Source: Candidatus Parcubacteria bacterium (GTDB lineage: Bacteria; Patescibacteriota; Minisyncoccia; Minisyncoccales; JAGLPU01). Taken from it: a stretch of DNA of 39,246 bases. Below the pieces are notes generated by a model. That model was not told where the DNA came from and made no database searches. It saw nothing but the letters and a program-made list of their open reading frames with translations. This document shows positions 1 to 39,003 of this stretch, one piece after another. Made by a program: the position numbers and the translations under genes. Location of the stretch: positions 1 to 39,246 of the forward strand of contig JAGLPU010000001.1 of NCBI GenBank assembly GCA_023137175.1, written 5' to 3'. How positions within the stretch are numbered: position 1 is the first letter of the stretch; each line of letters opens with the position of its first letter.

Positions 1-69
1 ATGACATTTCTATTTGGGCTAGACACCCATTCCAGGAGTGCCGTATATCTGTTAAAGTAGGGGTTAGGG

Positions 70-97
70 TTGAACATAAATTATTTTATGATAAAAT
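70..97 (+). promoter_or_regulatory. Promoter with extended -10, leaderless start
   Basis: A TTGAAC box at 70-75, a 16-base spacer and an extended -10 (TG at 89-90, TAAAAT at 92-97) lie so that transcription would begin at about 104, which is the A of the next ATG. The same -10 to ATG distance recurs at three other genes in this window. Read by eye. Confidence 0.5.
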
Positions 98-103
98 ACT
101 AAT

Positions 104-745: not shown

Positions 746-750
746 CAGAT

Positions 751-1071: not shown

Positions 1072-1074
1072 ATT

Positions 1075-3534: not shown

Positions 3535-3538
3535 TGAT

Positions 3539-4060: not shown

Positions 4061-4067
4061 TAAAAGT

Positions 4068-4643: not shown

Positions 4644-4656
4644 TAAATCAAAATAT

Positions 4657-6006
4657 ATGAAAAAGATAATTCTATTTAGTTTATTTATTTTAGTTGCTGT
4701 TTTTGGACTAGCAGGCAGCGCTTCTGCTCAAATTTGTGATGGTATTCCAGGGTGTGGAGCAGCAGAGAACTGTAATTGTCCTTCCTGTGATTGTGTTGTC
4801 AAATATGGTCCTGGCTGGGGTTGCGATCCTATTGCGTACCCAGCTGGAGATGGTTGTTATTTGATTCCGGTTCCGGTTTGTGGAAACGGTCTTTGTGAAG
4901 CCGGCGAAACTTGTGTTACTTGCGCTGATTGTATGATTGATCCTGTCCCTTGTCAGTATTGTAATCCAGCATCCCCTAATGCTGATTTAGCAACAGGCTG
5001 CGCTAACATTGATGCTATTGCTGACCCTTTTTGTGATCTAGATCCTGGTTTTCCACCTCAATGGGCTGAAACTTGTTTTCATTCTGATTGTTGTGATATT
5101 GCCGGTGGCGATACTTGTGCAATAAATCCATTACTCCCTTTTCCTTATTTAGAGTGTACTCCTGCCGCGCCGCCTGCTTGCGTCTGTGATGATATTTGCG
5201 ATTTTTTTCCTGGCCCGGAAAATTGCCAGAATTGTTCTTGCGATTGCGGGTGCGAAGACCATGGCGATGAAAGTGTTTGTGATCCTGACGCAGGAGGTGA
5301 TAATTTAACAGGCTGTGTTAATCCTTGTAACCATAACGATATCTGCGAGCCTGGCGAAAATTGTGTTTTTTGCGGCGACTGTATGATTGATCCTAGCCCC
5401 TGTGAATATTGTGACATCGCTCTTCCAGGTCGAGGATGCGCTCCTGCTCCTATTCCTCCATATGCAGAACCATTTGCAACTTGTTTTCATCCAGACAGTC
5501 CTTATTTTGGAAACCCTGCTTATGATTGTGAGAGAGTTCTTAATATATATCCTTGGGTGGATTGGGTTAAAACTCCGGTTTGTCCGAGTGGTAATTGCGA
5601 GCCCGGCGAAAATTGCGCTCCTCAAACTCTTGCTAATCCTTTAGGTTGTCCTGTTGACTGTGTGTGTCGGGGAGGATGGGGATGCAACCCGGGAGCAGTT
5701 GGCGCTGATGCAATAGGCTGCGTTTCTCCTGTTCCGCCTCCACCGGAAGAGATTGATAATCCTATTACCGCCGATACCATGGAAGCTTTAATAGAGAATA
5801 TCATTAATTTTATTTTCTATTTTGCGTTAATTTTTGCCCCATTTCTATTCATAATCGCGGGTTTCTACTTTACCACAGCGGGGGGCGATGTTGGCAGAAT
5901 CGCCACTGCTAAGACTATAGCCGGATGGACCGCAGCAGGGTTGATCACTATTTTGATAGCTAAAGGATTAATTGAAATGATAAAATCAGTGTTAGGTGTT
6001 GCTTAA
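4657..6006 (+). CDS. Large Cys-rich repeat protein with VirB2/TrbC-like C-terminus
   Basis: 449 residues. The signal peptide covers residues 1-24 (ending GSASAQ). About 350 residues of ectodomain hold roughly 50 cysteines and a recurring module of the form C-G-N-G-x-C-E-x-G-E-x-C-x-x-C-x-D-C-M-I-D-P-x-P-C-x-Y-C; two good copies begin near VCGNGLCEAGETC and HNDICEPGENC, and partial ones near CPSGNCEPGENC. A Pro-rich linker (VPPPPEEI) leads to two hydrophobic helices with the loop FTTAGGDVGRIATAKTI, nearly the same as in the gene before. Many disulfides are expected, so the domain should lie outside the cytoplasmic membrane. It sits 13 bases after its paralogue. Likely surface role such as adhesion or pilus; no ligand can be named. 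Confidence 0.75.
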   Translation: MKKIILFSLFILVAVFGLAGSASAQICDGIPGCGAAENCNCPSCDCVVKYGPGWGCDPIAYPAGDGCYLIPVPVCGNGLCEAGETCVTCADCMIDPVPCQYCNPASPNADLATGCANIDAIADPFCDLDPGFPPQWAETCFHSDCCDIAGGDTCAINPLLPFPYLECTPAAPPACVCDDICDFFPGPENCQNCSCDCGCEDHGDESVCDPDAGGDNLTGCVNPCNHNDICEPGENCVFCGDCMIDPSPCEYCDIALPGRGCAPAPIPPYAEPFATCFHPDSPYFGNPAYDCERVLNIYPWVDWVKTPVCPSGNCEPGENCAPQTLANPLGCPVDCVCRGGWGCNPGAVGADAIGCVSPVPPPPEEIDNPITADTMEALIENIINFIFYFALIFAPFLFIIAGFYFTTAGGDVGRIATAKTIAGWTAAGLITILIAKGLIEMIKSVLGVA

Positions 6007-6082
6007 TGTTTTTAATTAGTTTAAAATTAATAAAAGATTAAAGGTCGAACAATATTAAAAAAGATAAAACAAAACGAGAAAC

Positions 6083-6541
6083 ATGAAAAAACTTATTTTA
6101 GTTTTAATCGCTTTAGTAATGTTAATGATGCCGTTAATGGCTTCAGCTGATGAGACTGCTTACACAGATGTAGATGGTTGCACATTAAGGCATGATTTTG
6201 GTGAAGATTTTACAGGTTTTAGGTGTCTTGATAGCGGTGACCTGTGTCCGTTTAGTGACACGAACATCACGCTGGTTGATGGTACTGTTGCTAGTACTAC
6301 TTGTGGAGCTTGTTGTTTACTGGATACCATTTACACAATCACTGATTGGATATTCATTTTAGTTGGAGCGTTGGTAATTATTATGATCTTACTTGGAGGC
6401 TATAATCTGATTACCGCCGCAGGAGAACCGGACAAAATAACTAAAGGAAAGAATTATGTGCTTTGGGCGGCGATAGGTTTCGTTGTGGCATTGGCCTCTA
6501 AATCCATTCCTGCACTTGCTAGAGCGATAATAGGAGCATAG
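6083..6541 (+). CDS. VirB2/TrbC-like pilin family membrane protein
   Basis: 152 residues. A signal peptide at 1-22 (LMMPLMASA, then DETAY) is followed by a short outer part with six cysteines (CTLRHDF, CLDSGDLC, TTCGACCLLDT) and then two hydrophobic helices separated by GGYNLITAAGEPDKITKGKNYV. This pattern, with the sequence TAAGEPDKITKGK between the helices, is typical of the TrbC/VirB2-like pilin proteins frequent in CPR genomes. It is the third member of the local set and the one closest to a plain pilin in size. It lies 76 bases after the previous gene and just before a strong terminator. An SD-like GAGAAAC precedes the ATG by a few bases. Confidence 0.8.
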   Translation: MKKLILVLIALVMLMMPLMASADETAYTDVDGCTLRHDFGEDFTGFRCLDSGDLCPFSDTNITLVDGTVASTTCGACCLLDTIYTITDWIFILVGALVIIMILLGGYNLITAAGEPDKITKGKNYVLWAAIGFVVALASKSIPALARAIIGA

Positions 6542-6560
6542 ACGCACTGAATTTGTTGAC

Positions 6561-6605
6561 ACAAAAAACCCCGCCAGTTTATAAATTGGCGGGGTTTGAT
6601 TTTTC
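6561..6605 (+). terminator. Strong rho-independent terminator, probably bidirectional
   Basis: CCCCGCCA (6569-6576) pairs with TGGCGGGG (6587-6594) across a ten-base loop. T-rich sequence follows on the plus strand, and an A-run precedes it, giving a T-run on the minus strand. It closes the gyrA/pilin-like run and could also stop minus-strand transcription from hsp20. Confidence 0.9.
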
Positions 6606-6613
6606 TACAGCCT

Positions 6614-6636
6614 ATTGCTAAGCTTAGCTTAGCAAT
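6614..6636. repeat. Inverted repeat before tRNA-Leu
   Basis: ATTGCTAAG (6614-6622) and CTTAGCAAT (6628-6636) form a perfect 9-base inverted repeat with a five-base loop. No T-run follows, so a terminator is unlikely. A TATAAT box at 6650-6655 lies just downstream, only four bases before the tRNA. Confidence 0.55.
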
Positions 6637-6659
6637 ACTAGTTTAGCGATATAATACTT

Positions 6660-6743
6660 GCCGCGGTGGTGAAATTGGCAAACACGCTGGGTTTAGGACC
6701 CAGTGGGAGCAATCCCTTGAGAGTTCGAGTCTCTCCCGCGGCA
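6660..6743 (+). tRNA. tRNA-Leu (anticodon TAG)
   Basis: Acceptor arms GCCGCGG and CCGCGGC pair fully. The anticodon arm is CTGGG-TTTAGGA-CCCAG, giving anticodon TAG. A class II variable arm and the T-loop TTCGAGT are present. CCA is not encoded. The next gene is on the opposite strand, its stop two bases beyond the tRNA. Confidence 0.95.
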
Positions 6744-6745
6744 CA

Positions 6746-7156
6746 TTATTCTTTCTCTTTGATAGTTATTTTCTTTTTCTTTTCATTCTGGGTTTTTGGT
6801 ATAGTGATAGTTAAAATACCATCATTCATTGCTGCTTCAGCTTCTATATTATTGACTTCTTCAGGCAAGATTGCCTGTCTAGAGAACGGTCCCCAATAGC
6901 ATTCTTGGTAAAGGTAGTTTTTTTCGGTCTTAGAATCTTGCATTTTTGGTCTTTTTCTGTCTCCTTTTATAGTCAGCATATTGTTTTCAATAAAGATATC
7001 TAGTTCTTCTGTTTTTATTCCGGCAATAGTTGATTGGACTATAATCTCAGAATCAGTTTCAAAAACATCAATCGCCAGTTCTCCTTCCGGCTTGAACCAC
7101 TCTTTATCTTTTTTTGAAATTTTTGTTTTTTTGAAAAAGGATATCATATTTTGCAT
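6746..7156 (-). CDS. Hsp20/alpha-crystallin family small heat-shock protein
   Basis: 136 residues, usual for a bacterial sHsp. The alpha-crystallin domain runs from about residue 25 (GELAIDVFETDSEIIVQSTI) to 125. It contains the family landmarks: AGIKTEELDIFIENNMLTIKG, an acidic insertion, the FSRQAILPEEVN strand (the family's F-R-LP) and A-x-x-NDGILTITIPK, the A-x-x-x-n-GvL motif near the end. It acts as an ATP-independent holdase in the cytoplasm. It overlaps the PrsW-type gene upstream by 13 bases, so the two are probably transcribed together. Its stop lies two bases from the 3' end of tRNA-Leu on the other strand. Confidence 0.92.
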   Translation of the reverse strand: MQNMISFFKKTKISKKDKEWFKPEGELAIDVFETDSEIIVQSTIAGIKTEELDIFIENNMLTIKGDRKRPKMQDSKTEKNYLYQECYWGPFSRQAILPEEVNNIEAEAAMNDGILTITIPKTQNEKKKKITIKEKE

Positions 7157-24370: not shown

Positions 24371-24457
24371 GGAGAGGTGCCTGAGTGGTTGAAAGGGGCA
24401 CCCTGCTAAGGTGTTAGTTGCGCAAGCGACTCGAGGGTTCGAATCCCTCCCTCTCCG
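24371..24457 (+). tRNA. tRNA-Ser (anticodon GCT)
   Basis: Acceptor GGAGAGG pairs with CCTCTCC. The anticodon loop CTGCTAA gives GCT. A long variable arm (GTTGCGCAAGCGAC) marks class II. The discriminator G is followed directly by an encoded CCA (24458-24460), unlike the other three tRNAs here. The island of defence genes begins right after it. Confidence 0.95.
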
Positions 24458-24462
24458 CCAAT

Positions 24463-24476
24463 TCGTGCTAGCACGA
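24463..24476. repeat. Palindrome just after tRNA-Ser
   Basis: TCGTGCTAGCACGA is a perfect 14-base palindrome two bases after the encoded CCA. No T-run follows, so it is unlikely to be a terminator. It sits at the presumed left edge of the island. Function unknown. Confidence 0.5.
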
Positions 24477-24523
24477 GGAAGCTAGTACAGAGAATTTATT
24501 CAAAAAATAATATATTATTTATC

Positions 24524-25207
24524 ATGACATCTATAGCAACAAGTTCTATTGTTACACTTGTTTCGTTGTCGCTCAACGATGATCTCTCACTGTCGTTTGT
24601 TATGAGTGCATGGATAGTCGGTGCAATATTAGTATTTATATTATATTTTTTGATTCGTAAGTATTCAGGCCTGGGGAGGGGACAGAATTTTGAAATTGAT
24701 AAAGCAGAGGTCGGACTCGGTCAGGGAAAAATTATCTTCAAACCAAACATAGGCGACCAGCAGATTGCTTATCAAATATGGATTGAGCTGAGTACACGAA
24801 AAATTGGATTGCCGATAGATCTTCAGCACGATGTTGTGGTCGAGGTCTACAAATCTTGGTACGAATTTTTTTCCATAACTAGAGAGTTAGTTAAAGATAT
24901 CCCAGTTAATAAGGTGAAGAATAAGAGCACGCAAGAAATAATTAATCTTTCAATTTCTCTCCTAAACGATGGCCTACGACCTCATCTTACGTTATGGCAA
25001 GCTCGTTTTCGTCATTGGTACGAGCTACAATCAAAAAAAGTGAAAGCGGAAGATGATATTGACCCACAAACACTTCAGGCTAAATACCCAAGGTTTAAGG
25101 AATTAAAAAAAGACATGGAAATCGTGAACGAGCGTCTTATTAAGTATCGTGAAAAAATGTACGAATTAGTTTTAGGGCCATTGAAAGAAACTTCATCAAA
25201 GAAATAA
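24524..25207 (+). CDS. Single-helix membrane protein, partner of TIR-like protein
   Basis: 227 residues. One strong hydrophobic helix at about 26-47 (MSAWIVGAILVFILYFLI), then a cytoplasmic part with a beta-rich segment (EVGLGQGKIIFKPN), a helical core (IDLQHDVVVEVYKSWYEFFSITRELVKDIP), a Trp-rich stretch (LWQARFRHWYELQSKKV) and a basic coiled C-terminus. No known domain recognised. CGN codons supply 7 of about 10 arginines. It is followed after 49 bases by the Thoeris-type TIR-like gene, so the two may form a system in which this protein is the membrane effector. This is inference from order only. Confidence 0.6.
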   Translation: MTSIATSSIVTLVSLSLNDDLSLSFVMSAWIVGAILVFILYFLIRKYSGLGRGQNFEIDKAEVGLGQGKIIFKPNIGDQQIAYQIWIELSTRKIGLPIDLQHDVVVEVYKSWYEFFSITRELVKDIPVNKVKNKSTQEIINLSISLLNDGLRPHLTLWQARFRHWYELQSKKVKAEDDIDPQTLQAKYPRFKELKKDMEIVNERLIKYREKMYELVLGPLKETSSKK

Positions 25208-25256
25208 TTTATACTGAGCAATCAATCTACTGTTAAATATTAATATATAAATAAGT

Positions 25257-25868
25257 ATGCACAATATTTTCATTAGTTATCATCATGCTAACGATCAAAA
25301 GTATAAAGAAGGCCTTCTCGCAATGAATGGCGAGGGGATAAATAGAATTTTCATTGATGGATCAGTTGATACTGGAGATATATCCGACGATTTCTCAGAT
25401 GAAGAAATAAGAAAAAAAATTAGAGATGAATATCTACGTGACACAACTATAACAATTATACTTGTGGGATTAGAAACGAAATGGCGTAAACATGTGGACT
25501 GGGAAACCTACTCCAGTATGTTCGATGGAACAGTTAATAAAAAATCTGGCGTTCTTGTAATAATTCTACCAACAGCTGATAATAATTGTTTTACAGCGTC
25601 CCATGCTGACGAAAAAGAAAATATATATCCCGAAACACATAATTGGATATCTATTGATAATAGAATAGAATATGAAAGACGCTATCCATATTTGCCAGAT
25701 CGCATAATTGACAACTTGTTATGCAAAAATGCAAAAATTTCAGTTGTTCAGTGGAATAAAATCTGTGATGATCGTGAAAAACTAAAGTTTTTGATAGAAG
25801 CTACATATAATGACCGACTTAATTGCAACTATGACATGAGTAGAGGGTTGAGGCGACAGAATTCATAG
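25257..25868 (+). CDS. TIR-like (Thoeris ThsB/DUF1863 type) domain protein
   Basis: 203 residues. The start MHNIFISYHHANDQKYKEGLL is the typical TIR-like fold opening of the MTH538/ThsB group (FISYxH then D). The middle, IRDEYLRDTTITIILVGLETKWRKHVDWE, holds the conserved strand-turn and the W-x-x-x-V-D-W-E motif whose Glu is the expected NAD-processing residue. ThsB proteins make a cyclic ADP-ribose type signal after phage infection. No ThsA effector with SIR2/SLOG or Macro domains is visible; the membrane protein before it is the only candidate effector. The terminator at 25949 ends the two-gene transcript. Confidence 0.78.
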   Translation: MHNIFISYHHANDQKYKEGLLAMNGEGINRIFIDGSVDTGDISDDFSDEEIRKKIRDEYLRDTTITIILVGLETKWRKHVDWETYSSMFDGTVNKKSGVLVIILPTADNNCFTASHADEKENIYPETHNWISIDNRIEYERRYPYLPDRIIDNLLCKNAKISVVQWNKICDDREKLKFLIEATYNDRLNCNYDMSRGLRRQNS

Positions 25869-26240: not shown

Positions 26241-29200
26241 ATGTCAGCAATAATAACAAACATAGGCAATAACACACTTTCAGAGAATCTGAAAAAAATT
26301 CTTCCAAATTGTGATAAAATTGATGCACTGGTGGGGTATTTTTATTTCTCTGGATTTAAAGATCTTCATAACGAGTTGAAGGACAAACAAATTAGGATTC
26401 TTGTCGGGATGGATATTGATAAAAAGATTATTGAAAAAGTTTCGTCACTTGAAAATTTAAATTTTGATTTACACACCACTGATACGAGATTATCATCTCG
26501 TTCAGGTGCAAAAGCTGATTATATTGAAAATTTTGCGAAGATTTTTAATGACACTGATCATTTCGATAATGAAGATGCTAAAATATCATTTGAAATATTT
26601 TTAGACAAAATTAAAGATAGTAGTTTGCAAATTAAAAAAACTGCACAAGCAAATCATTCTAAATTTTACATCTTACACAATAAATCTGAATTATCGAAAG
26701 ATGGCGAGATGCCAGGAATTGTTATTGAAGGCTCAAGTAATTTAACTTTTTCTGGACTTAAAGGACAAAGAGAACATAATCGAATACTTCAAGAAAAGCA
26801 TTACTATGAGGATGATGTAAAAAGATTTGAGGAATCTTGGAATGATCCGGATAACATAGTTATTACTGATATAGAAACTTCAGAAGAGTTTATTGCAGAG
26901 ATTAAAAGTAAGATTTGGCTGTATTCACTTCCTGATCCGATTCTTATGTATTATAGAGTTCTCAATGAATATTTTTCCGTAGATATTATTGAGGGTATGA
27001 AAACTCCACAAAAAATAACAAGCGGAAAGTTTTTTGATCTTAAATATCAAAAAGATGCAGTAAATCTTGGAATCGACAGAATTAAAAAATTTGGAGGAGT
27101 AATTATTGCTGATGTTGTTGGTCTCGGAAAAAGTATTATTGCTTCTACTATTGCTCATAATCTTAATCTAAAAACTATCATCATCGCACCACCGCACCTT
27201 GAAACTCAATGGAAAGATTACGTGGCTGATTTTGATGTTAAGGGCTTTGTATATACTACAGGAAAAATTGAAGAAGCACTTGAAAGACACGAGAATGATA
27301 AAAGTAAACTTCTTATTATTTTGGATGAGGCTCATAAGCACCGAAATGAGGATACCGATAATTACAAGGCACTCCATAAGTTGTGCGCTGGTAATTCTGT
27401 TATGGCACTTTCAGCAACACCATTCAATAATGATCCAAAAGATATTTATGCACTCATTAAACTTTTTAGTACTCCAGGGCAGTCAATAATTAAAACAGTA
27501 GAAAATCTTAGCATATCATTTAATGAACTTTTCAAAAGATATAAAGCAATTCGTAAAGAAATAAGAAAAAATGTAAAAGGAGAAAATGTAAGTGATTCTA
27601 TAAAAGTTACAAATGAAATTAAATCTATAGCCGATGAGCTAAGAAAAATGATCGAACCACTCGTCATTAGACGTTCTCGCTTGGACCTTGAAGAAATACA
27701 AGATTATAAAGATGATTTAGAGCAACATGGCGTCGCGTTCGCAAAAGTTAAAGATCCTGAACTGCTTGAATACGATCTAGGTGATCTATTTGATCTTTAT
27801 GCAAGTACTTTAAATCAGATTTCCTCTGATGACGGAAGTAAAAGTTTTGAAGGAGTACGATACAAACCAGTTAGTTATATAAAGCCTGGGTCCGAATCTA
27901 TACAGAAAATCATAAATAGCGAAGATAATGAAGAAGACATGTCCCCAGAGGAAAGAATACAACGAATGACACAAGCCCAAACAAACATAGCTAAATTTAT
28001 GCGACGTTTATTGGTGCGTCGTTTTGAGAGTTCAATTGGGGCATTCAAAGCATCACTAGAAAATATGATTACTTCTTCGGAGGCGATGCTTAACTGGTAC
28101 ACAGAGCGGAATGAAGTACCTGTTTATAAGAAAGGTTCTTTACCAGATATAGCAGATCTTGAGAGTATGGGCGATGAGGAAAGAGATGCTATCTTCTCTA
28201 AACTGAAAGATAAAGGGCTTATATTAATACCAGTAACAGAAATCAATCCAATATTTGAAGATGATTTAAAAAAAGATATTAAATTATTAAAGGAAATTCA
28301 ATTAAAGTGGTCAGAAATTGCAGCTGATCCTAAATATAATTTTTTTAGAAATAATATTTCTGAGTCAATAAAAAATGAAAAAAACCGAAAAATTATTGTT
28401 TTTACAGAATTTTCAGACACTGCTAATTATGTTTATGAAAAATTATGTAACGATGGCTTTGAAAGAGTTTATAAATACAGCTCTGAGAATGCATCCAAAA
28501 TGAACAAAGAAATAATTCAGAAAAATTTTGACGCTGGATTGGATAAATCAAAACAAGTAAACGATTATGATATTATAATTGCAACGGATGCTATTTCGGA
28601 AGGATTTAACTTACATCGTGCAGGAACAGTTATAAATTATGACATACCATATAATCCAACTCGAGTAATTCAACGCGTAGGTCGCATAAACCGTATAAAT
28701 AAAAAAGTATTTGAGGAACTTTATATTTATAATTTTTTTCCGACCACGACAGGTGAAGCAGAAACAAATACTCGCGCAATTTCAACGCTAAAAATGAATC
28801 TCATACATTCACTTTTTGGTGAAGATACGAAGATATTTACTAAAGATGAAGATCTTAAAAATTATTTTGCAGAACAATATCAGGAAGAAAATAAAAAAAA
28901 CGAGAGTCTCTCATGGGACGCTCCATATAGAAATGCATGGTTGAAAATAAAAGATGATCCAGGAATTATGCAAAAGATTGCGAAGATTCCTCATCGTGCA
29001 AGAATTGCACGAAAATTCGCTATTCCAGGCGTTGTCGCATTTGCTAAAAGAAGTGGAAATTTTGTATTTGCTTACGGTAAGACCCCTGAAACAGTACAGA
29101 TCGTTTCTCCACAGATAGCATTGCCATTATTTAATGATATAGCTGACGCAGAAAAGCCATTAGAAACTACAGCAAATTTTGAGCCAATTTATAAAATTGC

Positions 29201-29537
29201 AAAAGAACACATTTTTAAAGATAATACTAAGCCACCAATAAATGGTAAGCGCAAGCAAGAAGCGCTTGGTAAAGTGAAAGTCTTTTCTAATCAACATTCA
29301 CCGGCCAATGATTTTTGTCGAGATATAGAAAAAATAATTAAAGAGCTAGATGGTCTCCCAAATGGTGTGCTTAAAGAATTTGCAGACTTTAAAATTGATA
29401 AATCAAATTTAAGTAATTCGTTTAAAGAATTAAAAAAGATTGTACCACAAAATTATTTAGACAGTATTTTTGAGACCGCAGAACGTGCTAACGAAACTGG
29501 CAAGTTAATAGTTCTGTCTGAAGAATTAATAATATGA
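26241..29537 (+). CDS. PLD-nuclease/SNF2-type helicase fusion
   Basis: 1098 residues. An N-terminal phospholipase D-like nuclease domain (1 to about 230) has one HKD-type half-site: H139-S-K141, then GSSN at 164-167. The helicase core follows with Walker A VGLGKS near 293-298, DEAH at 362-365, SATPFN at 391-396, a charged insertion from about 430 to 650, and the C-terminal lobe with TEFSDTANYVYEKL, ATDAISEGFNLH and QRVGRINRI at 811-819. The last 200 residues are of unknown fold. A one-site PLD nuclease would act as a dimer. It overlaps the next gene by 4 bases (ATGA), so the helicase and the methyltransferase are likely made in equal amounts. Role: ATP-driven DNA translocation and cutting; probable restriction subunit. 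Confidence 0.82.
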   Translation: MSAIITNIGNNTLSENLKKILPNCDKIDALVGYFYFSGFKDLHNELKDKQIRILVGMDIDKKIIEKVSSLENLNFDLHTTDTRLSSRSGAKADYIENFAKIFNDTDHFDNEDAKISFEIFLDKIKDSSLQIKKTAQANHSKFYILHNKSELSKDGEMPGIVIEGSSNLTFSGLKGQREHNRILQEKHYYEDDVKRFEESWNDPDNIVITDIETSEEFIAEIKSKIWLYSLPDPILMYYRVLNEYFSVDIIEGMKTPQKITSGKFFDLKYQKDAVNLGIDRIKKFGGVIIADVVGLGKSIIASTIAHNLNLKTIIIAPPHLETQWKDYVADFDVKGFVYTTGKIEEALERHENDKSKLLIILDEAHKHRNEDTDNYKALHKLCAGNSVMALSATPFNNDPKDIYALIKLFSTPGQSIIKTVENLSISFNELFKRYKAIRKEIRKNVKGENVSDSIKVTNEIKSIADELRKMIEPLVIRRSRLDLEEIQDYKDDLEQHGVAFAKVKDPELLEYDLGDLFDLYASTLNQISSDDGSKSFEGVRYKPVSYIKPGSESIQKIINSEDNEEDMSPEERIQRMTQAQTNIAKFMRRLLVRRFESSIGAFKASLENMITSSEAMLNWYTERNEVPVYKKGSLPDIADLESMGDEERDAIFSKLKDKGLILIPVTEINPIFEDDLKKDIKLLKEIQLKWSEIAADPKYNFFRNNISESIKNEKNRKIIVFTEFSDTANYVYEKLCNDGFERVYKYSSENASKMNKEIIQKNFDAGLDKSKQVNDYDIIIATDAISEGFNLHRAGTVINYDIPYNPTRVIQRVGRINRINKKVFEELYIYNFFPTTTGEAETNTRAISTLKMNLIHSLFGEDTKIFTKDEDLKNYFAEQYQEENKKNESLSWDAPYRNAWLKIKDDPGIMQKIAKIPHRARIARKFAIPGVVAFAKRSGNFVFAYGKTPETVQIVSPQIALPLFNDIADAEKPLETTANFEPIYKIAKEHIFKDNTKPPINGKRKQEALGKVKVFSNQHSPANDFCRDIEKIIKELDGLPNGVLKEFADFKIDKSNLSNSFKELKKIVPQNYLDSIFETAERANETGKLIVLSEELII

Positions 29538-32500
29538 TGAAATTTGATGAAAAATATAATTCAGAAATATTTTTATCTTTTCTGCGGGATTTTTTACCTA
29601 AGGATTATGAAAATAAGGAAAAAGATATTACAGAACTAAATAGATGTAAAATAATCAACAAAGCCAAAGAATTAGGCTATTGTAAATCTATAGATTTATA
29701 TGTTCTGGAGATGAGTCATTCTAGAGAGACTGATCCTCGCGTTACTATTGCTACAGATGGATTTAAAATTCTTGCAACCTATGGAATAGACAAAGCGCTT
29801 GTAGTGTTTAAAAATGATGAATCTGAAAATTATAGATTTTCATATCTAACAATATCTCTCGATGTTAATGAAAAAAATAAAGTAGTTAGAAAATATTCTA
29901 ATGCTCGTAGGTATTCTTTTTATCTCGGGCCTGGTGCAAAAATAAACACGCCGACAAAGTACCTTATAAAAAAGGGGAGGATTTCTGACATTGACGATTT
30001 GAAAGACAGATTTTCACTTGAAGTCGTTAATAAAGATTTTTATAAAGAGATTTCTCATCTATTTACAAAATTGATTGGAGGATCTTTTGGTAACAGTAAG
30101 AACAAAAATAATTATGATTCATTATTGAAATTACCATCAGTTGCTGATAGGAGTAAAACAAGCTTAGAGTTTGGAGTAAGGTTGATTGGTCGTGTAATAT
30201 TTTGTTGGTTCTTAAGGGAGAAAAAAAGTGTTCATGGCATATCTTTAATGCCGAATGAATTACTTTCTTTTCAAACGTCAAAAAAGAGTCAAGATTATTA
30301 TCATAAAATTTTGGAGCCGATTTTTTTTGAAGTTTTAAATAAACCTATTAATAGAAGAAAAGAGGAATATTCTGATAAACTTTTTTCATCAATACCATAT
30401 TTAAATGGAGGTTTGTTTTCTCCTCAATCCGATGACTATTACAGTTATAATGGTGGTAAACAGACGATTTATCAAAATACAGTAATAGTACCAGACAGTT
30501 GGATACAAGATTTTTTTGAGTTTTTGGAAACATATAATTTTACAATTGATGAGAACATCAGTTTTGATGAGGAACTTTCCATTGATCCAGAGATGCTCGG
30601 TAGAATTTTTGAAAATTTACTTGCTGAAATAAATCCTGAAACTGGAGAGTCGGCTAGGAAAAGCACGGGTAGTTACTATACACCAAGAATGATAGTAGAT
30701 CATATGGTCGATGAAAGTCTTTTTGCTTATTTGGATAACAAGACAAAAATTGGTGATAAAAAACTTCGAGCAGTAATTAGTTACAATCTCCTAGATGATA
30801 TGGAAGCACCCTTGACCCAAGACGAGAAAGAGAAGGTTGTGTTTTCTTTAAGTAAAATTAAAATACTGGATCCTGCTTGTGGATCTGGGGCATTTCCAAT
30901 AGGAGCACTTCAAAAAATAGTTTTCATACTTCAGCAGGTTGATCCAGATGGTCAAAAATGGTTTAAAAAACAAATAGGAAATACATCTCCAGAAATACAA
31001 AGAGTTATCGAGCGTGAATTTAAAAATAAGAATTTTGACTATATAAGAAAGCTCGGAATTATCAGGGAAAATATTTTTGGTGTTGATATCCAACCAATTG
31101 CTACAGAAATCTCAAGGCTCAGATGCTTCCTTACTTTGATTGTGGATGAAAGCATTCAAGATAGTTTAGAAAATAGAGGGATAGAACCTTTACCAAATCT
31201 TGATTTCAAATTTGTAACAGCAAATAGTCTTATTGGGTTACAAGGTTTTTCAAAAATTAATCAGAATGGTTTATTTGAAGACAGGTCTGGTATCAGTGAA
31301 TTACAAGAGCTTAGAGATATGTTTTTTACAGCATCAGGTGTTGAACGTGATCAATTAAAGTTACAGTTTGTTCAAGTTCAGCGTCAAATGTTAGAAAATT
31401 TAATTAGTAATAATATTCGTGGTCATGCCGAATTAACTACTAAGCTTACCACTTGGGATCCTTTTAGTCATAAAGCATCATCATGGTTTGATTCAGAATG
31501 GATGTTTGGAGTTAAAAATGGTTTCGATGTTGTAATAGCGAATCCGCCCTATCTAAGTCATGTAAATTTTTCTAAAAAAGAAAAAGGATTATTACGAACT
31601 AGTTTTCAAACATTTAAAGGGCGAGCAGATATTTATATCGCATTTTATGAACAAGGGATTAAATTATTGAAAGATAATGGAAATTTAATATATATTACTC
31701 CTAATAAATTTTTTAGAGCTGGTTATGGAGAAAAATTACGCAAGTATCTTAAAGATAATACAAAAATTATCTCAATAATTGATTTTGGTGACGCGTCTAT
31801 TTTTGAAGCAACAACATATTCTAGTATTATTTTACTTCAGAAAAACAGTCTTCAAAAAAGTAAGTTTAGTTTTCTTAAAATTAAAAAACTTGAAGAATTA
31901 TACCATAAAAAAAATTTTGAAATGCTAGATAGTAATTATTTATCAAACGATTTGTGGACATTTGAAAATGAAGACTTATTACAGATTTGGAAGAAAATGA
32001 AATTTTCTTCAGTTGGTTTACTTGAATACATTAATAATAAATTTTATAGAGGGATTGTAACTGGATTAAATGAAGCTTTTATTATTGACGAAAAACAAAA
32101 AGATATTTTAATTAAAAAGAATATTCTTGTATCCGAAATCATCAAGCCATATTTAAGAGGTAGAAATGTAAAAAGATGGGTTTCAAATTCTAATTCTTAT
32201 GTTATTTTCACTTATCATGGTGTTGATATTAATAAATATCCAGAAATACTTGATTATTTAAGTCCTTTTAAAGACAAGCTAGAGAAGAGGGCTACTAGTG
32301 AAAATCACAAATGGTATGAACTACAACAACCTCAAACTGGGATATATAAGTATTATAAACAGACAAAAATTATTTCTACTGATATTGCAAAGAGATGTGA
32401 ATTTACTATTGATGATAGTGGCTTTTATATTGATGCAACAATTTTTTGTATACCCTTTAATGATTTATATCTTTTAGCAATTCTTAATTCAAAATTAATT

Positions 32501-32785
32501 GAAGCGTATTATAGAAATCAAACTAGTACTATAAGAGGAGATTTTTTACGTTTTAAAAAAATTTACTTAGGTTTGTTACCTATTAAAGAAATTACAGATG
32601 ATAGAAAAGAAATATTTATTAAGCTTGCTGAAAAAATTATAACTCTAACTAAATGTGAGGATTATATAGAAAATAATTTCAAGCATAATCAAGTACGAGA
32701 ATACGAAAAAGAAATCGATCAAGTGGTTTACCAACTTTATAATTTAACTAAAAAAGAAATTAAACTCATTGAATCTAGTTGTTGA
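29534..32785 (+). CDS. Eco57I-type DNA methyltransferase with specificity domain
   Basis: 1083 residues. The N-terminal part (to about 430) is the family-typical region containing LSIDPEMLGRIFENLLAEI and KSTGSYYTPRMIVDHMV. The SAM site is DPACGSGAF at 446-454, and the N6-adenine catalytic motif is NPPY at 670-673. The remaining 400 residues resemble the TaqI-like C-terminal specificity domain (IVTGLNEAFIID, IKPYLRGRNVKRW, DATIFCIPF, LLAILNSKLIEAYYR). It should methylate adenine in a defined sequence without a separate S subunit. No PD-(D/E)XK or other nuclease motif was noticed at its N-terminus. It overlaps the helicase gene by 4 bases. Confidence 0.85.
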   Translation: MMKFDEKYNSEIFLSFLRDFLPKDYENKEKDITELNRCKIINKAKELGYCKSIDLYVLEMSHSRETDPRVTIATDGFKILATYGIDKALVVFKNDESENYRFSYLTISLDVNEKNKVVRKYSNARRYSFYLGPGAKINTPTKYLIKKGRISDIDDLKDRFSLEVVNKDFYKEISHLFTKLIGGSFGNSKNKNNYDSLLKLPSVADRSKTSLEFGVRLIGRVIFCWFLREKKSVHGISLMPNELLSFQTSKKSQDYYHKILEPIFFEVLNKPINRRKEEYSDKLFSSIPYLNGGLFSPQSDDYYSYNGGKQTIYQNTVIVPDSWIQDFFEFLETYNFTIDENISFDEELSIDPEMLGRIFENLLAEINPETGESARKSTGSYYTPRMIVDHMVDESLFAYLDNKTKIGDKKLRAVISYNLLDDMEAPLTQDEKEKVVFSLSKIKILDPACGSGAFPIGALQKIVFILQQVDPDGQKWFKKQIGNTSPEIQRVIEREFKNKNFDYIRKLGIIRENIFGVDIQPIATEISRLRCFLTLIVDESIQDSLENRGIEPLPNLDFKFVTANSLIGLQGFSKINQNGLFEDRSGISELQELRDMFFTASGVERDQLKLQFVQVQRQMLENLISNNIRGHAELTTKLTTWDPFSHKASSWFDSEWMFGVKNGFDVVIANPPYLSHVNFSKKEKGLLRTSFQTFKGRADIYIAFYEQGIKLLKDNGNLIYITPNKFFRAGYGEKLRKYLKDNTKIISIIDFGDASIFEATTYSSIILLQKNSLQKSKFSFLKIKKLEELYHKKNFEMLDSNYLSNDLWTFENEDLLQIWKKMKFSSVGLLEYINNKFYRGIVTGLNEAFIIDEKQKDILIKKNILVSEIIKPYLRGRNVKRWVSNSNSYVIFTYHGVDINKYPEILDYLSPFKDKLEKRATSENHKWYELQQPQTGIYKYYKQTKIISTDIAKRCEFTIDDSGFYIDATIFCIPFNDLYLLAILNSKLIEAYYRNQTSTIRGDFLRFKKIYLGLLPIKEITDDRKEIFIKLAEKIITLTKCEDYIENNFKHNQVREYEKEIDQVVYQLYNLTKKEIKLIESSC

Positions 32786-32813: not shown

Positions 32814-35800
32814 ATGTTACAGGAAATTAATTGGGATAACTTTAGGGTAAAATTTAGTGCTGACAAACGAGGAGCATTTGAGCGGCTTTGTTATATTCTA
32901 TTCTGCAAAGAACATAGCAAAGATATCGGAATATCTCGCTTCAAAAATCATACTGGTATAGAGACGGACCCAATTGAAGTGAATGGAAAAGTTATTGGCT
33001 GGCAAGCAAAATTTTACGATACAAGATTATCGGAACACAAAAAGGACTTTATTAATTCTATAGATACCACTAAAACTAGACATCCGAAGATCAATAAGGT
33101 AATTTTTTATACTAATCAAGAATTTGGACAAAATCCCAATGGTACTGATCCTCAATACAAAACAGATATAGAAAATCACGCAAAATCTAAGAACGTAGAG
33201 ATAGAATGGCGTACTGAAAGCTATTTTGAGTCTCCCTTTGTTTGTGAAAAAAACGCAAATATAGCAAAATATTTCTTTACCCTCAAAGAGAAGAGTATAA
33301 TTGATCTCATAAATGAATTATCTCAACATACAGAAGCGATTTTGGACCCTATTCGCTCAGAAATTACCTTTAATAATAAGGCAATTAAAATCGATAGGTC
33401 GCTATTCATGGAAGCCCTTAAAGATGCCATCGCTAGATCTACTCTGATTGTTGTGAGTGGGGAAGCGGGAATTGGCAAAACAGCGGTAATAAAAGATTTC
33501 TATAACCAAATCAAAAGCACGGTGCCCTTTTTTGTGTTTAAGGCAAATGAGTTCAATGTCGTAAATATGAATGAAATCTTCAAGAGTTATGGCGATTTTA
33601 CACTGTCAGACTTAGTACAAGAATATCAAGATGCAGAAGAAAAATACATCATTGTTGATTCCGCGGAAAAGCTGTCAGATATAGAGCATACGGAGGTGTT
33701 TCAGCAGTTTTTATCGATACTGCGGAATAATGGTTGGAAAATAATTTTCACTACAAGGCTCAGCTACCTTGATGACCTCAAGAATGCGTTTGTTCAAATC
33801 TATAACGTTAGTTTCGAACCTCTCAATATCCCAAACCTTACAAGCGAGGAATTGGTGACGCTATCTACCGAATATCAATTTAACTTGCCACAAAGCCAGC
33901 GATTGCAGAAACTTCTGCAAAATCCTTTTTATTTAAACGAGTACTTGCTTTATAATCCTGTGGGAGAAACGACAATAAACTATGCAGATTTTAAAGATAC
34001 AATTTGGAATAAGAGAATCGCAAAATCCTCCTATCAAAGGAACAATACGCATAGGAAAAGAGAGGATTGTTTTTTAGAAATAGCAAAGAAAAGAGCAACT
34101 TCAGGCAACTTCTTCGTGACGGTGGACGGATTTGATGACGAAATATTGCAATTATTAGAAATAGATGAGATTATCAGATTTGATTCAAGTGCTAGGGGGT
34201 ATTTCATTACTCACGATATTTATGAGGAGTGGGCGCTTAATAAGGTTATAGAACAAGCATTTTTTAAATCCACAGACTACAAAGCTTTCTATAGAGAAAT
34301 CGGACATTCCTTGGCAATCCGCAGAGCATTTCGAAACTGGTTGTCTGAAAAATTTGCTTCAAATGACAGCGACATCATGGGTCTCATTGAAACCACCGTT
34401 GAGAGCGATCAGATTGATCCTTGCTGGAAAGATGAAGCGCTTGTTGCTGTTTTGCTCTCAGAGTACACTACTACTTTTGTAAACCACTTTGAGAAAAAAC
34501 TTTTAAAGTCACCCGAAAGAATTGTTGAACAGGAAGAGTCATCACCAGTAGTGAGGTCAATCTTGATTCATTATAAATACGAGGACAGCTTGTTGTATAG
34601 AATCATTTTTTTACTCAGAATTGCCTGCAAAGAAATAGACCAAGATTTTTTAAAACTACTCGGTGTACCTAAGTTTAATAACATAGCTTTATCTATGCTT
34701 GTTACGAGGCCAAAGGGTCAGGGTTGGGAGAGTATTATAGGTTTTGTAAACAAACACAAGGAAAAATTGGGCTTGATGTATATGCACTTTATTCTCCCAG
34801 CGCTTGATGACTGGAATAGAAATAATAAACAAGGGGAAACAACTAAAAATGCGAGCCAGATAGCACTATTTTATTATAATGAATTAACAAAGCAAGAAAA
34901 TTTCTATTTTAGCTCTCGCGACGATACAAAAGATAAGCTCATTAGAACAATACTAAATGGATCTCATGAGATAAAAACAGAACTGACACATATTTTCAAT
35001 GAGGTTGCAGCCAATAAGGAAACCAGCCATAGAGGTAGATACTACGAACTGATCAAAGTGGTACTTTCGTCTCTTGCTGAGAGTGCTGAAATTGCAAAGA
35101 GTCTTCCAAATGAAATAATAACGCTGGCAAATCTCTTCTGGTTCTATACCCCTAAAGAAACAGACGGGTATTCAGATTATAGGAATGATATTGAGCAGTA
35201 CTTTAATTTATCGGGAGGCCATCTTGAATATTATCCGGCAAGTGCTTTCCAAACACCCGTATTTCAGATGTTGCAAACAGCACCCGAAGAGACCGTTAAC
35301 TTTATTTTATCTTTCACAAATAAGTCAATTGAATACTTTGCAAAGTCAGAGTTTGCAAAGCACGAAGCTGAAGAAATTGAAGTACTCGTTGATGATTCTG
35401 GGACACCCGTAAAGCAATACATATGTCACAGAATTTGGAACCTATATCGAGGAACCCAAACAGCACCCTCTCTCCTTGAGTCTGTGCACATGGCGTTGGA
35501 AAGGTGGTTACTTATGGTTGCGAAGACAGCGAAACCAAAGATTCTTGAAGAATGGTGTTTGTATCTAATACAAAACTCTCGTTCAGCATCTATCACAGCC
35601 ATTGTTACAAGCGTTGTTCTTGCTGAGCCCTCTAAGTTATTTAATGTTGCTCAAATTTTATTCCAGACAAAAGAGTTTTTCTTTTACGATACAGCTAGAA
35701 TGCAACTTGATATAACGGCGAAGAGTACCTACTTAATGAGCCATGACCCTGAAGGCATATTTAAGAACGAACGTCTTAAAACCTGTGAGGATAATAAGCA

Positions 35801-37646
35801 TCGTGGTCATTCACTTGAGCATCAAGCGTTTAATTATCAGCTTTTTGCAAGCGAGGACGAAAAAGGAGAGATTGCCAAGAAACGACAAGATGTTTTGTGG
35901 AAAATATTTGACAACTATTATGCTCAACTCCCCGATAAAACAAAAGAAGTAGAGAATGACAAGACGTGGAGGTTGTATCTAGCAAGAATGGATAGAAGGA
36001 AGATAAACATCACGACGGAAAGAAAAGACGACAAAGTTCTTATAAGTTTCAATCCAGAAATTGACCCTGAATTACGAAAATACAGTGAGGATTCACTGAC
36101 AAAAAGTTCGGAGGCGATGAAATATTCGTCGCTACAGGTCTGGTCACGCTACAGATTTGAACGCAACGAAATCGAGTATCAGAAATATCCGCAATACGAC
36201 AATGATCACAAACTTGTAATCTCTGAAACAGAGCAAATTATTGAAGGACTAAAGGATGATAAAAGCGAAGGCAGAAGTTTTACTTTGTTTTATCGTTCAA
36301 TACCTCCTTACACATGTGCCGTACTAATTCGTGATTACTTCAACCAACTTGATGCCAAAGAGAAAGAATTTTGTAAAGACATAATCCTTCGATATGCTTC
36401 AATGCCATTAAAGCATGGCTACCGATATCAAGCTGGCGATGGTGTGGATGTGGCGCTTAATGTTTTGCCGCTCTTATTGAAGCATTTTATTCAAGACTCT
36501 AAGGCAATAAAGGAAACATTGCTGTTTGCATTATTTGACTCGTATTTAGTCGGTATGAATCAGCGATTCTCGGATCACGCTGTGTCAGCAGTTTTGCAAC
36601 ACTTATGGAAAGAGAGTCCTGAAGACGCCAATTCTATATTTTTAGGATACCTACTACTAAAGCCAAAGTTCGATAATTTAAGCAAATTAGTCAGAGAAGA
36701 AAACAGTAAAAAGAATAAGTATGGTCTTTCAAACGTAACCGTATTGGAGCGTCTCACGACTGAATATAAATCAGAAATTTCCAAGGTTATCTCTAATCAA
36801 CTTACCTACAGAGAAGTGCACAATGTGATTGATTTCGATCCTGGTACGCTGGTAACCGCATTCTTGCTTCTGCCTACAAAAACCACAAACGAGGATTACA
36901 AAAGATTTGTGTGTGAAATCTGCCCAGTTCTTTCAGAATTTATGAAGAATAACGATCGTGGAGGAGAGTTAGATTACACACTCAACCACCGGTTTTTGGA
37001 AAAATTAGCTTATTTCGTTTTGACTTCGAAAAAAGAGGATATTGAGGCCTATTTGAAACCGTTTATTGACGATTTTGGAAAATTAGAAGAACCGGCAGAT
37101 ATTTTTAGCGAGTTTATTATGGCTGAAAACAGTTTGAATCAATATGATGAGTTTTGGGTAGTCTGGAATCTTTTCTATCCAAAGATAATAGAACTATGTG
37201 AAGGTGGTAATCTGCAACGGCATTCAACAAACATTGTGCATAATTACCTATTAGCCTGGCAGTACTGGGGTAAAGACGTAAAAAAATGGCATTCGCTAAA
37301 AAAACAAGACAAAATATTTTTCAAGAAAGTAGCAGAAGATATTGGTGGAAATCCCGCAGTTTTGTATTCGCTTTCGAAGTTACTGAATGAAATTGGGAGT
37401 AGTTTTGCCGACGATGGAATATTTTGGATTAGTGACATTTTGCAGAAAAATCCAGATGTTTACGGCAAGGAACTAGAAGTGAATACTGTTTATTATTTAG
37501 AGAATCTTGTTAGAGGATATATTCTCAGAAATCGTTATAAAGTTCGAACAACACCACAGATAAAGAAACAGATACTAGTGATATTGAATTTTCTTTTTAA
37601 TAAAGGCTCGGTCACTGCATATATACTAAGGGAAGATATTTTGTGA
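32814..37646 (+). CDS. Mrr-like nuclease/STAND NTPase, Avs-like
   Basis: 1610 residues from the ATG at 32814; a TTG at 32769 overlaps the previous gene and adds nothing conserved. An N-terminal PD-(D/E)XK-type domain has Glu23 (AFERLCYILF), the pair ETD at 50-52 and QAK at 64-66 (GWQAKFY), the usual D-Q-x-K arrangement of Mrr-like nucleases. A STAND-type NTPase follows: Walker A GEAGIGKT at 216-223, Walker B ending Asp282 (YIIVDSAEK), and TTR at 313-315. The rest, over 1200 residues, is helical and probably forms a sensor solenoid. Size and order fit the Avs (AVAST) phage-protein sensors, especially Avs4 with its Mrr domain. It starts 28 bases after the methyltransferase and lacks a clear ribosome site. 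The base composition is visibly richer in G and C than its neighbours, suggesting a separate origin. Confidence 0.72.
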   Translation: MLQEINWDNFRVKFSADKRGAFERLCYILFCKEHSKDIGISRFKNHTGIETDPIEVNGKVIGWQAKFYDTRLSEHKKDFINSIDTTKTRHPKINKVIFYTNQEFGQNPNGTDPQYKTDIENHAKSKNVEIEWRTESYFESPFVCEKNANIAKYFFTLKEKSIIDLINELSQHTEAILDPIRSEITFNNKAIKIDRSLFMEALKDAIARSTLIVVSGEAGIGKTAVIKDFYNQIKSTVPFFVFKANEFNVVNMNEIFKSYGDFTLSDLVQEYQDAEEKYIIVDSAEKLSDIEHTEVFQQFLSILRNNGWKIIFTTRLSYLDDLKNAFVQIYNVSFEPLNIPNLTSEELVTLSTEYQFNLPQSQRLQKLLQNPFYLNEYLLYNPVGETTINYADFKDTIWNKRIAKSSYQRNNTHRKREDCFLEIAKKRATSGNFFVTVDGFDDEILQLLEIDEIIRFDSSARGYFITHDIYEEWALNKVIEQAFFKSTDYKAFYREIGHSLAIRRAFRNWLSEKFASNDSDIMGLIETTVESDQIDPCWKDEALVAVLLSEYTTTFVNHFEKKLLKSPERIVEQEESSPVVRSILIHYKYEDSLLYRIIFLLRIACKEIDQDFLKLLGVPKFNNIALSMLVTRPKGQGWESIIGFVNKHKEKLGLMYMHFILPALDDWNRNNKQGETTKNASQIALFYYNELTKQENFYFSSRDDTKDKLIRTILNGSHEIKTELTHIFNEVAANKETSHRGRYYELIKVVLSSLAESAEIAKSLPNEIITLANLFWFYTPKETDGYSDYRNDIEQYFNLSGGHLEYYPASAFQTPVFQMLQTAPEETVNFILSFTNKSIEYFAKSEFAKHEAEEIEVLVDDSGTPVKQYICHRIWNLYRGTQTAPSLLESVHMALERWLLMVAKTAKPKILEEWCLYLIQNSRSASITAIVTSVVLAEPSKLFNVAQILFQTKEFFFYDTARMQLDITAKSTYLMSHDPEGIFKNERLKTCEDNKHRGHSLEHQAFNYQLFASEDEKGEIAKKRQDVLWKIFDNYYAQLPDKTKEVENDKTWRLYLARMDRRKINITTERKDDKVLISFNPEIDPELRKYSEDSLTKSSEAMKYSSLQVWSRYRFERNEIEYQKYPQYDNDHKLVISETEQIIEGLKDDKSEGRSFTLFYRSIPPYTCAVLIRDYFNQLDAKEKEFCKDIILRYASMPLKHGYRYQAGDGVDVALNVLPLLLKHFIQDSKAIKETLLFALFDSYLVGMNQRFSDHAVSAVLQHLWKESPEDANSIFLGYLLLKPKFDNLSKLVREENSKKNKYGLSNVTVLERLTTEYKSEISKVISNQLTYREVHNVIDFDPGTLVTAFLLLPTKTTNEDYKRFVCEICPVLSEFMKNNDRGGELDYTLNHRFLEKLAYFVLTSKKEDIEAYLKPFIDDFGKLEEPADIFSEFIMAENSLNQYDEFWVVWNLFYPKIIELCEGGNLQRHSTNIVHNYLLAWQYWGKDVKKWHSLKKQDKIFFKKVAEDIGGNPAVLYSLSKLLNEIGSSFADDGIFWISDILQKNPDVYGKELEVNTVYYLENLVRGYILRNRYKVRTTPQIKKQILVILNFLFNKGSVTAYILREDIL

Positions 37647-37659
37647 TTTTTTTTAAATT

Positions 37660-39003
37660 CTATTTCAATAAAATTTTTTTATTCTTCAATAAAATTTTTC
37701 CTTCTAGACAACTAAGAAGTTCTCTCTTTTCTTGAATTTCACCCTCTTTCAATAAATATTTTGCATAATTTCGTATATCGATGTCGTCTATAATAATTTT
37801 CTCCTTTTTACCAAGAATAAATTGTTGAAACTTTTTAAATTTTTCAACATCTTCTCTAAGCTTCTTTTTGATTTCAGTTTCGTCTAAATCAATTTTCTCA
37901 ATCAGATTTTCAAATTGTTTAATTAAATCAATTTCGTTTATATATCCACATTTACAATTTTTGTCCTTTGCTTTTGTGCATCCATAATATACATGCCTAT
38001 TATGGTCACCATTTTTTAGTTTCTTAAACTTTTCAGTTGCTGAAATACCAGAACCACATAATCCGCATCTCATAATTTTTGTAAATGCGAATTCAATATT
38101 TTCTTTTCTAACTAATTGAGAGTTTTTGATTTGTTTTTGCACTAGATCAAATAATTCTTTAGTAATGATTGGTTTATGTTTGCCTTGGTACCAATTACCT
38201 GATCTTCGTGGATATTCAAATGCACCATAATAAAATGTATTATCTAGTATTCTATAGATATTCCCGAGGCTTAAATGTTTTTTGCCTAAGGCTGTTCTGA
38301 AATTAAGATCGAACTTAAGCCAATGATAAATTTTTCTGCCCGACCATTTTCCATAAGCTACTTTTTCAAACATTTGTTTTATAACAGGCGCCCTATCGGG
38401 ATCAACCAGACATCCGCCCTTATGGTCAATTCGTTTTTCTTTAAAGTATCCAGTTGGGGGACATGTCGGCCATAGTCCCATTTCACATCTTGTCCGCAAT
38501 CCACGTTTTACATTTATACCTCTGTTGTCATTTTCAAGCTTTGCTTGAGAGCAGAGTATCATTAACAAAAACTTTTCATTTGGTGAATCACTGAAAGCCT
38601 GTCCGTATGTACGAATACTGAGAAGTTTTTTTGCGTCCATAAGGTCAACGAGCGACCCTAAATCTCCAGCATTTCTAGATAATCTATCTGGTGCCCATGT
38701 GAGAATAGCATTGAATCTATCTTCTGATATGTCACGAATTAATTCTTTAAATATAGGTCGTTTATTTGAGTCTTTAGCTGATTTTGATTCTCTTCTGATA
38801 TCAATAATTTCAAGATTTTCACGTTCGGCGATTTGGAGCATTTCTTTAACTTGAGATTCAATAGAAAGTGCCTGACGTTCATCTGATTCAGTACTCTTTC
38901 GAGCATATAAGCAATATCTCATTTTGATATCCGGAGGCACAGCAGACCTTGTTTGTTGTGATAATAAATTACTATCCATATATTCATTAATGACACACTT
39001 CAT
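37660..39003 (-). CDS. Large serine recombinase
   Basis: 447 residues. The resolvase-type catalytic domain has Ser37 (YARKSTES), ALSIESQ and WAPDRLSRNAGDLG. A Recombinase domain (GYFKEKRIDHKGG through YRILDNTFYYG) and a zinc ribbon (CGLCGSG and CTKAKDKNCKCG) follow, with a basic, coiled end. It cuts and rejoins two att sites by a 5'-linked serine exchange. The start is open: the conserved part begins at Met28 (38922), so the first 27 residues may or may not be made. The C-terminus ends in a repeated ILLK motif. It converges with the STAND gene; 13 bases part the stops. No excision-directionality gene is visible. Confidence 0.9.
   Translation of the reverse strand: MKCVINEYMDSNLLSQQTRSAVPPDIKMRYCLYARKSTESDERQALSIESQVKEMLQIAERENLEIIDIRRESKSAKDSNKRPIFKELIRDISEDRFNAILTWAPDRLSRNAGDLGSLVDLMDAKKLLSIRTYGQAFSDSPNEKFLLMILCSQAKLENDNRGINVKRGLRTRCEMGLWPTCPPTGYFKEKRIDHKGGCLVDPDRAPVIKQMFEKVAYGKWSGRKIYHWLKFDLNFRTALGKKHLSLGNIYRILDNTFYYGAFEYPRRSGNWYQGKHKPIITKELFDLVQKQIKNSQLVRKENIEFAFTKIMRCGLCGSGISATEKFKKLKNGDHNRHVYYGCTKAKDKNCKCGYINEIDLIKQFENLIEKIDLDETEIKKKLREDVEKFKKFQQFILGKKEKIIIDDIDIRNYAKYLLKEGEIQEKRELLSCLEGKILLKNKKILLK

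What the first reader, a model, noticed from the sequence alone, without database searches (positions are those of the whole stretch)
32814..37646. Avs-like Mrr-STAND protein in a CPR bacterium
Seen: E23, E-x-D 50-52, Q-A-K 64-66, GEAGIGKT, VDSAEK, TTR, then a solenoid over 1200 residues. Known: Avs proteins have an N-terminal effector, STAND core and C-terminal sensor of this length; Avs4 has an Mrr-like nuclease and detects phage portal protein. Inferred: this is a diverged Avs4-like sensor, perhaps for phages of CPR bacteria.
Basis: partly seen in the sequence, partly recalled or inferred. Interest (0 to 1): 0.75.

Follow-up and report, generated by a model that had tools for sequence, protein, structure and literature searches.

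The report
Genuine Avs4 phage sensor in Patescibacteria
This gene is a complete copy of Avs4, a known bacterial immune receptor that cuts DNA after sensing a phage portal protein; here it sits at the end of a restriction-like operon inside a mobile defence island of a tiny, probably CPR, bacterium, so the protein is a known kind and only its host and setting are unusual.

Summary
ORF 32814-37646 encodes 1,610 residues that match AVAST type 4 (Avs4) end to end: NCBIfam equivalog NF041815 at 2,063 bits (cut-off 1,500), PADLOC Avs4 at 1,998 bits, and phmmer to the E. coli Avs4-portal cryo-EM chain 8dgf over residues 5-1610 (E=0). It is an ordinary full-length Avs4, not a 'diverged Avs4-like' protein. 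The motifs are present, but D52 is not part of the conserved site: E23, E50, Q64 and K66 are invariant across the Avs4 set, while position 52 is D, N or E. The host is probably CPR/Patescibacteria (0.78 Mb genome, no ribosomal protein uL30, gyrase as close to a named Buchananbacteria genome as to other genomes of its phylum). Avs4 is rare there and moves horizontally. The gene ends a co-directional operon (PLD-SNF2 helicase, Eco57I-type methylase, Avs4) in an island bounded by tRNA-Ser(GCT), a 14-bp palindrome and a CcrB-like serine recombinase. In the three CPR loci with an upstream neighbourhood, Avs4 lies just downstream of a restriction-type operon, of a different type each time. Verdict: new member of a known kind; modest interest for host and context.

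The parts
32814..37646 (+). Avs4 gene, 1,610 aa
   Evidence: NF041815 equivalog 2,063 bits, cut-off 1,500; PADLOC Avs4 1,998 bits; 8dgf_A full length
32814..33308 (+). Mrr-like PD-(D/E)xK nuclease domain, residues 1-165; conserved E23, E50, Q64, K66
   Evidence: phmmer to 8dgf_A E=5e-47; residue conservation
33381..34313 (+). STAND NTPase core, about residues 190-500; Walker A 216-223, Walker B 281-285, R315
   Evidence: weak Pfam AAA/nSTAND hits; alignment
34314..37643 (+). C-terminal helical solenoid, predicted phage-protein sensor
   Evidence: phmmer of residues 600-1610 to 8dgf_A E=2e-263; AlphaFold plus Foldseek/VIA to 8dgf
29534..32785 (+). Eco57I/TaqI_C-type N6-adenine methyltransferase, 1,083 aa (DPACGSG 446, NPPY 670), 28 nt upstream of avs4
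   Evidence: Pfam Eco57I 1.8e-41, TaqI_C 1.7e-20; PADLOC type IIG RE-MTase; motifs
26241..29537 (+). PLD (single HKD, H139-S-K141, GSSN 164) plus SNF2-family helicase, 1,098 aa; stop overlaps the methylase start
   Evidence: Pfam SNF2-rel_dom, Helicase_C, PLDc_2; DrmD/HKD+Snf2; motifs
25257..25868 (+). ThsB-type TIR protein, 203 aa, in the same island
   Evidence: Pfam ThsB_TIR 3e-18
24524..25207 (+). Small protein of unknown family, probable N-terminal membrane anchor
   Evidence: No Pfam or PADLOC match; translation
37660..39003 (-). Large serine recombinase, CcrB-like, at the far side of the island
   Evidence: Pfam Resolvase, Recombinase, Zn_ribbon_recom; NCBIfam CcrB 3e-33, below cut-off
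24371..24460 (+). tRNA-Ser(GCT): left boundary of the island
   Evidence: ARAGORN; synteny with same-genus genome G001 stops at 24461
24455..24478 (.). Predicted attL, 24 bp repeated at G000:C17:4360-4383; contains the palindrome TCGTGCTAGCACGA (24463-24476), found only 3 times in the genome

Best explanation
The gene is a functional-looking Avs4 (AVAST type 4) receptor. Its helical solenoid binds a conserved phage protein, the portal in characterised Avs4. ATP binding by the STAND core drives oligomerisation, which brings the N-terminal Mrr-like nuclease domains together, and the activated nuclease cuts phage and host DNA and stops the infection by altruistic death. In this genome it is the last gene of an operon whose first two genes look like a restriction-modification-type module, and it travels in a serine-recombinase island at a tRNA-Ser gene. 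Shown here: family identity over the whole length, conserved catalytic and nucleotide-binding residues, solenoid match to portal-bound Avs4, gene order, island boundary on the left. Inferred from characterised relatives: portal ligand, oligomerisation, DNA cleavage, death. Inferred from context: co-transcription with the upstream genes, and mobility of the island.
For: NF041815 2,063 bits against cut-off 1,500, profile 1-1579; PADLOC Avs4 1,998 bits; 8dgf_A residues 5-1610 E=0, N- and C-terminal parts separately E=5e-47 and 2e-263; invariant E23/E50/Q64/K66, Walker A and B; solenoid model matches portal-bound Avs4 well above other solenoids. Literature: Avs1-4 nucleases cleave phage and host DNA on recognising terminase or portal (PMC12931631); Avs4 recognises the phage portal (PMC12724215).
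Against: No phage, portal or activity was tested. Identity to E. coli Avs4 is only about 42-44%, and 36% in the last 400 residues, so the ligand could have shifted. The AlphaFold model of the N-terminal half was too poor to use (pLDDT 46). The operon is inferred from spacing only; the promoter scan was no better than shuffled sequence.
Confidence: 0.88

Rival explanations
1. It is an Avs4 by descent whose sensor now recognises another conserved virion or packaging protein of phages that infect CPR bacteria, not the portal.
For: Sensor identity to E. coli Avs4 falls to about 30-34% in residues 1191-1400, the least conserved stretch; in the Avs5 family different ligands trigger different clades (PMC12931631).
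Against: The solenoid aligns with portal-bound Avs4 along its whole length and residues 911-1120 stay 43-59% identical to the E. coli proteins.
Confidence: 0.12
2. Avs4 is not an independent system here but a built-in fail-safe of the upstream restriction-type module: it acts when phage escapes restriction.
For: 28-nt spacing and same strand; in the two other CPR loci with an upstream neighbourhood Avs4 is also directly downstream of restriction genes, type I RM in L002 and AlwI-type RM in L034.
Against: Three different module types, and E. coli Avs4 loci without adjacent restriction genes, show that Avs4 needs no fixed partner; clustering in defence islands can explain the pattern. The PLD-SNF2/methylase pair also exists without Avs4 in a Parabacteroides plasmid. 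Only three loci.
Confidence: 0.2
3. The gene is a decaying relic without activity.
For: The host genome is reduced, and the Desulfothermus and Pacearchaeota relatives are broken or frameshifted in their assemblies.
Against: Open 1,610-codon frame with all catalytic and nucleotide-binding residues conserved.
Confidence: 0.03

Closest known systems
E. coli Avs4 (PDB 8dgf, bound to the PhiV-1 portal; NCBIfam NF041815)
   Same: Same architecture and length over 1-1610; same nuclease, Walker A and Walker B residues; solenoid sensor aligns end to end.
   Different: About 42-44% identical; different host group and different neighbours. E. coli loci have two integrases and two hypothetical genes upstream instead of restriction genes.
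Avs4 of Ca. Buchananbacteria (L002) and of G281
   Same: Closest relatives; they form one clade with the window (support 100/98 for the three, 100/99 for the pair). L002 is 60% identical.
   Different: L002 lies behind a type I restriction-modification operon, not a PLD-SNF2/methylase pair; the G281 copy is cut by the contig end.
Type-2 BREX-related systems (HKD-SNF2 helicase plus N6-methylase; PMC12839542) and DISARM DrmD
   Same: The two genes upstream of avs4 have the same domain pairing: HKD nuclease at the N-terminus of a SNF2 helicase, next to an N6-methylase.
   Different: No DUF499 ATPase and no DUF3780 gene between the tRNA and the recombinase; scores far below the DISARM and other equivalog cut-offs.

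Membership tests
Avs4 (AVAST type 4) | Full-length match above the curated equivalog cut-off | tested here: met
   NF041815 2,063 bits, cut-off 1,500, profile 1-1579/1579
Avs4 (AVAST type 4) | N-terminal Mrr-like nuclease with acid and QxK | tested here: met
   8dgf_A E=5e-47 for residues 1-166; E50, Q64, K66 invariant, D52 not. Fold not confirmed by structure: model pLDDT 46
Avs4 (AVAST type 4) | STAND NTPase core with Walker A, Walker B and following TTR | tested here: met
   Residues 216-223, 281-285, 315 conserved
Avs4 (AVAST type 4) | Long C-terminal solenoid homologous to portal-bound Avs4 | tested here: met
   E=2e-263; Foldseek 6.5e-48, VIA Z 26.8 over 743 residues, rmsd 21.4 because of the low-confidence global curvature
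Avs4 (AVAST type 4) | Activation by phage portal protein | not testable with these tools
   Needs expression or a complex structure
Avs4 (AVAST type 4) | ATP-dependent oligomerisation and DNA cleavage | not testable with these tools
   Needs biochemistry
Type-2 BREX-related system (for the two upstream genes) | HKD-endoDNase fused to SNF2 helicase plus N6-methylase | tested here: met
   definition from PMC12839542
Type-2 BREX-related system (for the two upstream genes) | DUF499 ATPase and DUF3780 in the locus | tested here: not met
   The six proteins between 24524 and 39003 gave no such Pfam hit; the right end of the island, on another contig, is only partly known
CPR/Patescibacteria host | Small genome, lack of uL30, gyrase affinity | tested here: met
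   0.78 Mb at 90% completeness; uL30 absent in G000, G001, G111 and Buchananbacteria G473 but found in 13 of 14 controls; GyrA 56% to G473, the same as to other genomes of the phylum. No 16S in the assembly

The most novel reading that the evidence does not exclude
In CPR bacteria Avs4 is regularly built into restriction-type operons as their last gene, so that the receptor acts as a death switch when restriction fails, with interchangeable restriction modules upstream.
Probability: 0.2. Interest if true: 0.5.

Novelty: new member of a known kind. Interest (0 to 1): 0.3.

Why it matters
It places a complete STAND immune receptor, of the class compared with NOD-like receptors, in a very small genome of a group where few phages and few defences are known. 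Because Avs4 reads a conserved phage protein, the receptor could be used as a probe to learn which portals, and so which phages, attack these uncultured bacteria.

Tried and rejected
AlphaFold of residues 1-500 gave pLDDT 46 with only three aligned sequences and was not used for fold claims. No Avs4 relative was found in IMG/VR contigs, and phage genomes gave only one weak partial hit, so carriage by a phage is not supported. A 16S check failed because the assembly has no 16S; gyrase and uL30 were used instead. The original Avs4 paper is not in the library. A search for CPR papers that name AVAST found none. Promoter and terminator scans were at shuffle level and say nothing about the operon. 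The idea that Avs4 needs a restriction partner was rejected as a general rule because of the E. coli loci. Middling structural matches of the sensor to importins and CAND1 were taken as the common solenoid fold, not as relatives.

Full report
WHAT IS THERE. The ORF 32814-37646 (+) codes for 1,610 residues. It is Avs4: NCBIfam NF041815 2,063 bits over the whole profile, cut-off 1,500; PADLOC Avs4 1,998 bits; phmmer to the solved E. coli Avs4 chain 8dgf_A over residues 5-1610, E=0. No other family in Pfam comes close (weak P-loop hits only). It is the only copy in the 779-kb genome.

RESIDUES. Against Avs4 from Buchananbacteria, G111, two E. coli lineages, G583 and Pacearchaeota, E23, E50, Q64 and K66 are invariant where aligned, as are the P-loop and Walker B residues and R315. 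The Calothrix homologue keeps the STAND core and the sensor but has no Mrr domain: the effector end is swapped in that branch.

STRUCTURE. The N-terminal model was unusable (pLDDT 46). The C-terminal model (residues 600-1610, pLDDT 64) has 8dgf as its best PDB match with a wide gap to the next: Foldseek 6.5e-48 against 6.3e-6, VIA Z 26.8 over 743 residues against 12.1. The large rmsd (21 A) reflects uncertain global curvature, so fine geometry should not be read from it.

HOST. Genome 0.78 Mb at 90% completeness; no uL30 in it, its congener, G111 or the named Buchananbacteria genome, while 13 of 14 controls and Desulfothermus have it. That CPR bacteria lack uL30 is my own knowledge of the group. 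GyrA is 56% identical to Buchananbacteria G473 and 56% to two other genomes of its phylum.

DISTRIBUTION AND TRANSFER. Over the curated cut-off Avs4 is found in 1 of 100 relatives searched (the window's own genome), 2 of 380 genomes of the phylum (a third copy, in G281, is cut by a contig end) and 1 of 381 genomes around Buchananbacteria. The window protein is 60% identical to the Buchananbacteria Avs4, more than their gyrases (56%), although immune genes usually change faster; with the patchy distribution this points to transfer between lineages. In the tree the window, Buchananbacteria and G281 form one clade (100/98), while G111 of the same phylum falls with E. coli, archaeal and Desulfothermus sequences: at least two Avs4 lineages entered the phylum.

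NEIGHBOURS. Two genes precede avs4 on the same strand: a PLD-SNF2 helicase (26241-29537) whose end overlaps the start of an Eco57I/TaqI_C-type adenine methylase (29534-32785), which ends 28 nt before avs4. The pair occurs together in a Parabacteroides plasmid (43% and 37% identity, adjacent, with a TIR gene nearby and no Avs4 annotated in the stretch), so it is a module of its own. Its domain pairing is that of the Type-2 BREX-related systems of PMC12839542, but DUF499 and DUF3780 are missing, so I do not file it there. In Buchananbacteria avs4 follows a type I RM operon (hsdM, hsdS, hsdR, then a small SprT-like gene, 13 nt gap); in G111 it follows two methylases and an AlwI endonuclease (140 nt gap). 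Three of three CPR loci with a readable upstream side thus have restriction genes there, each of a different type. With three loci and no background rate this is a lead, not a result.

ISLAND. Synteny with the same-genus genome G001 stops at 24461, one base past tRNA-Ser(GCT). A 24-bp stretch there (24455-24478), holding the perfect palindrome TCGTGCTAGCACGA, recurs at C17:4360-4383 beside the tRNA-Ser(TGA)/CBS-protein block that follows tRNA-Ser(GCT) in G001, so C17 probably carries the right end. The palindrome occurs three times in the genome and only at such sites; the third is at tRNA-Ser(GGA) on C33, behind which lies a second island with a 90.6%-identical recombinase, a cytosine methylase and a GHKL ATPase. 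The window therefore shows one of two related serine-recombinase defence islands. Joins between contigs are inferred.

MECHANISM. Sensor binds a phage protein, STAND core oligomerises with ATP, Mrr nucleases cut DNA, infection aborts. For Avs1-4 nuclease-driven death on recognising terminase or portal is stated in PMC12931631 and portal recognition by Avs4 in PMC12724215. None of it was tested on this protein.

VERDICT. The protein is a new member of a known family; host, mobile island and the restriction-operon position give it moderate interest.

Noticed in passing
G000:C33 (L071) 1-6980: Second island at tRNA-Ser(GGA) with a 90.6%-identical serine recombinase, C5-cytosine methylase, GHKL ATPase and response-regulator-like protein; the same 14-bp palindrome at its tRNA end.
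   Followed up: partly
24463-24476; G000:C17:4362-4375; G000:C33:6877-6890: Perfect palindrome TCGTGCTAGCACGA occurs exactly three times in the genome, each at a likely attachment site of the island recombinases.
   Followed up: yes
24524-25868: Probable membrane protein of unknown family next to a ThsB-type TIR protein; no ThsA-like partner was recognised among the island genes.
   Followed up: partly
L037 7869-12224: Calothrix plasmid homologue with Avs4-like STAND core and sensor but no Mrr domain: a replaced effector end.
   Followed up: partly
L035 4630-8867: In G220 a 313-aa ORF has an Mrr domain related to Avs4 (29%) followed by the start of a different NTPase, then a 1,053-aa helical ORF, near a serine recombinase: possibly one split Mrr-STAND gene.
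   Followed up: no
G000:C17 (L072) 4384-5989: Two ORFs without any Pfam or PADLOC match at what is probably the right end of the Avs4 island.
   Followed up: partly
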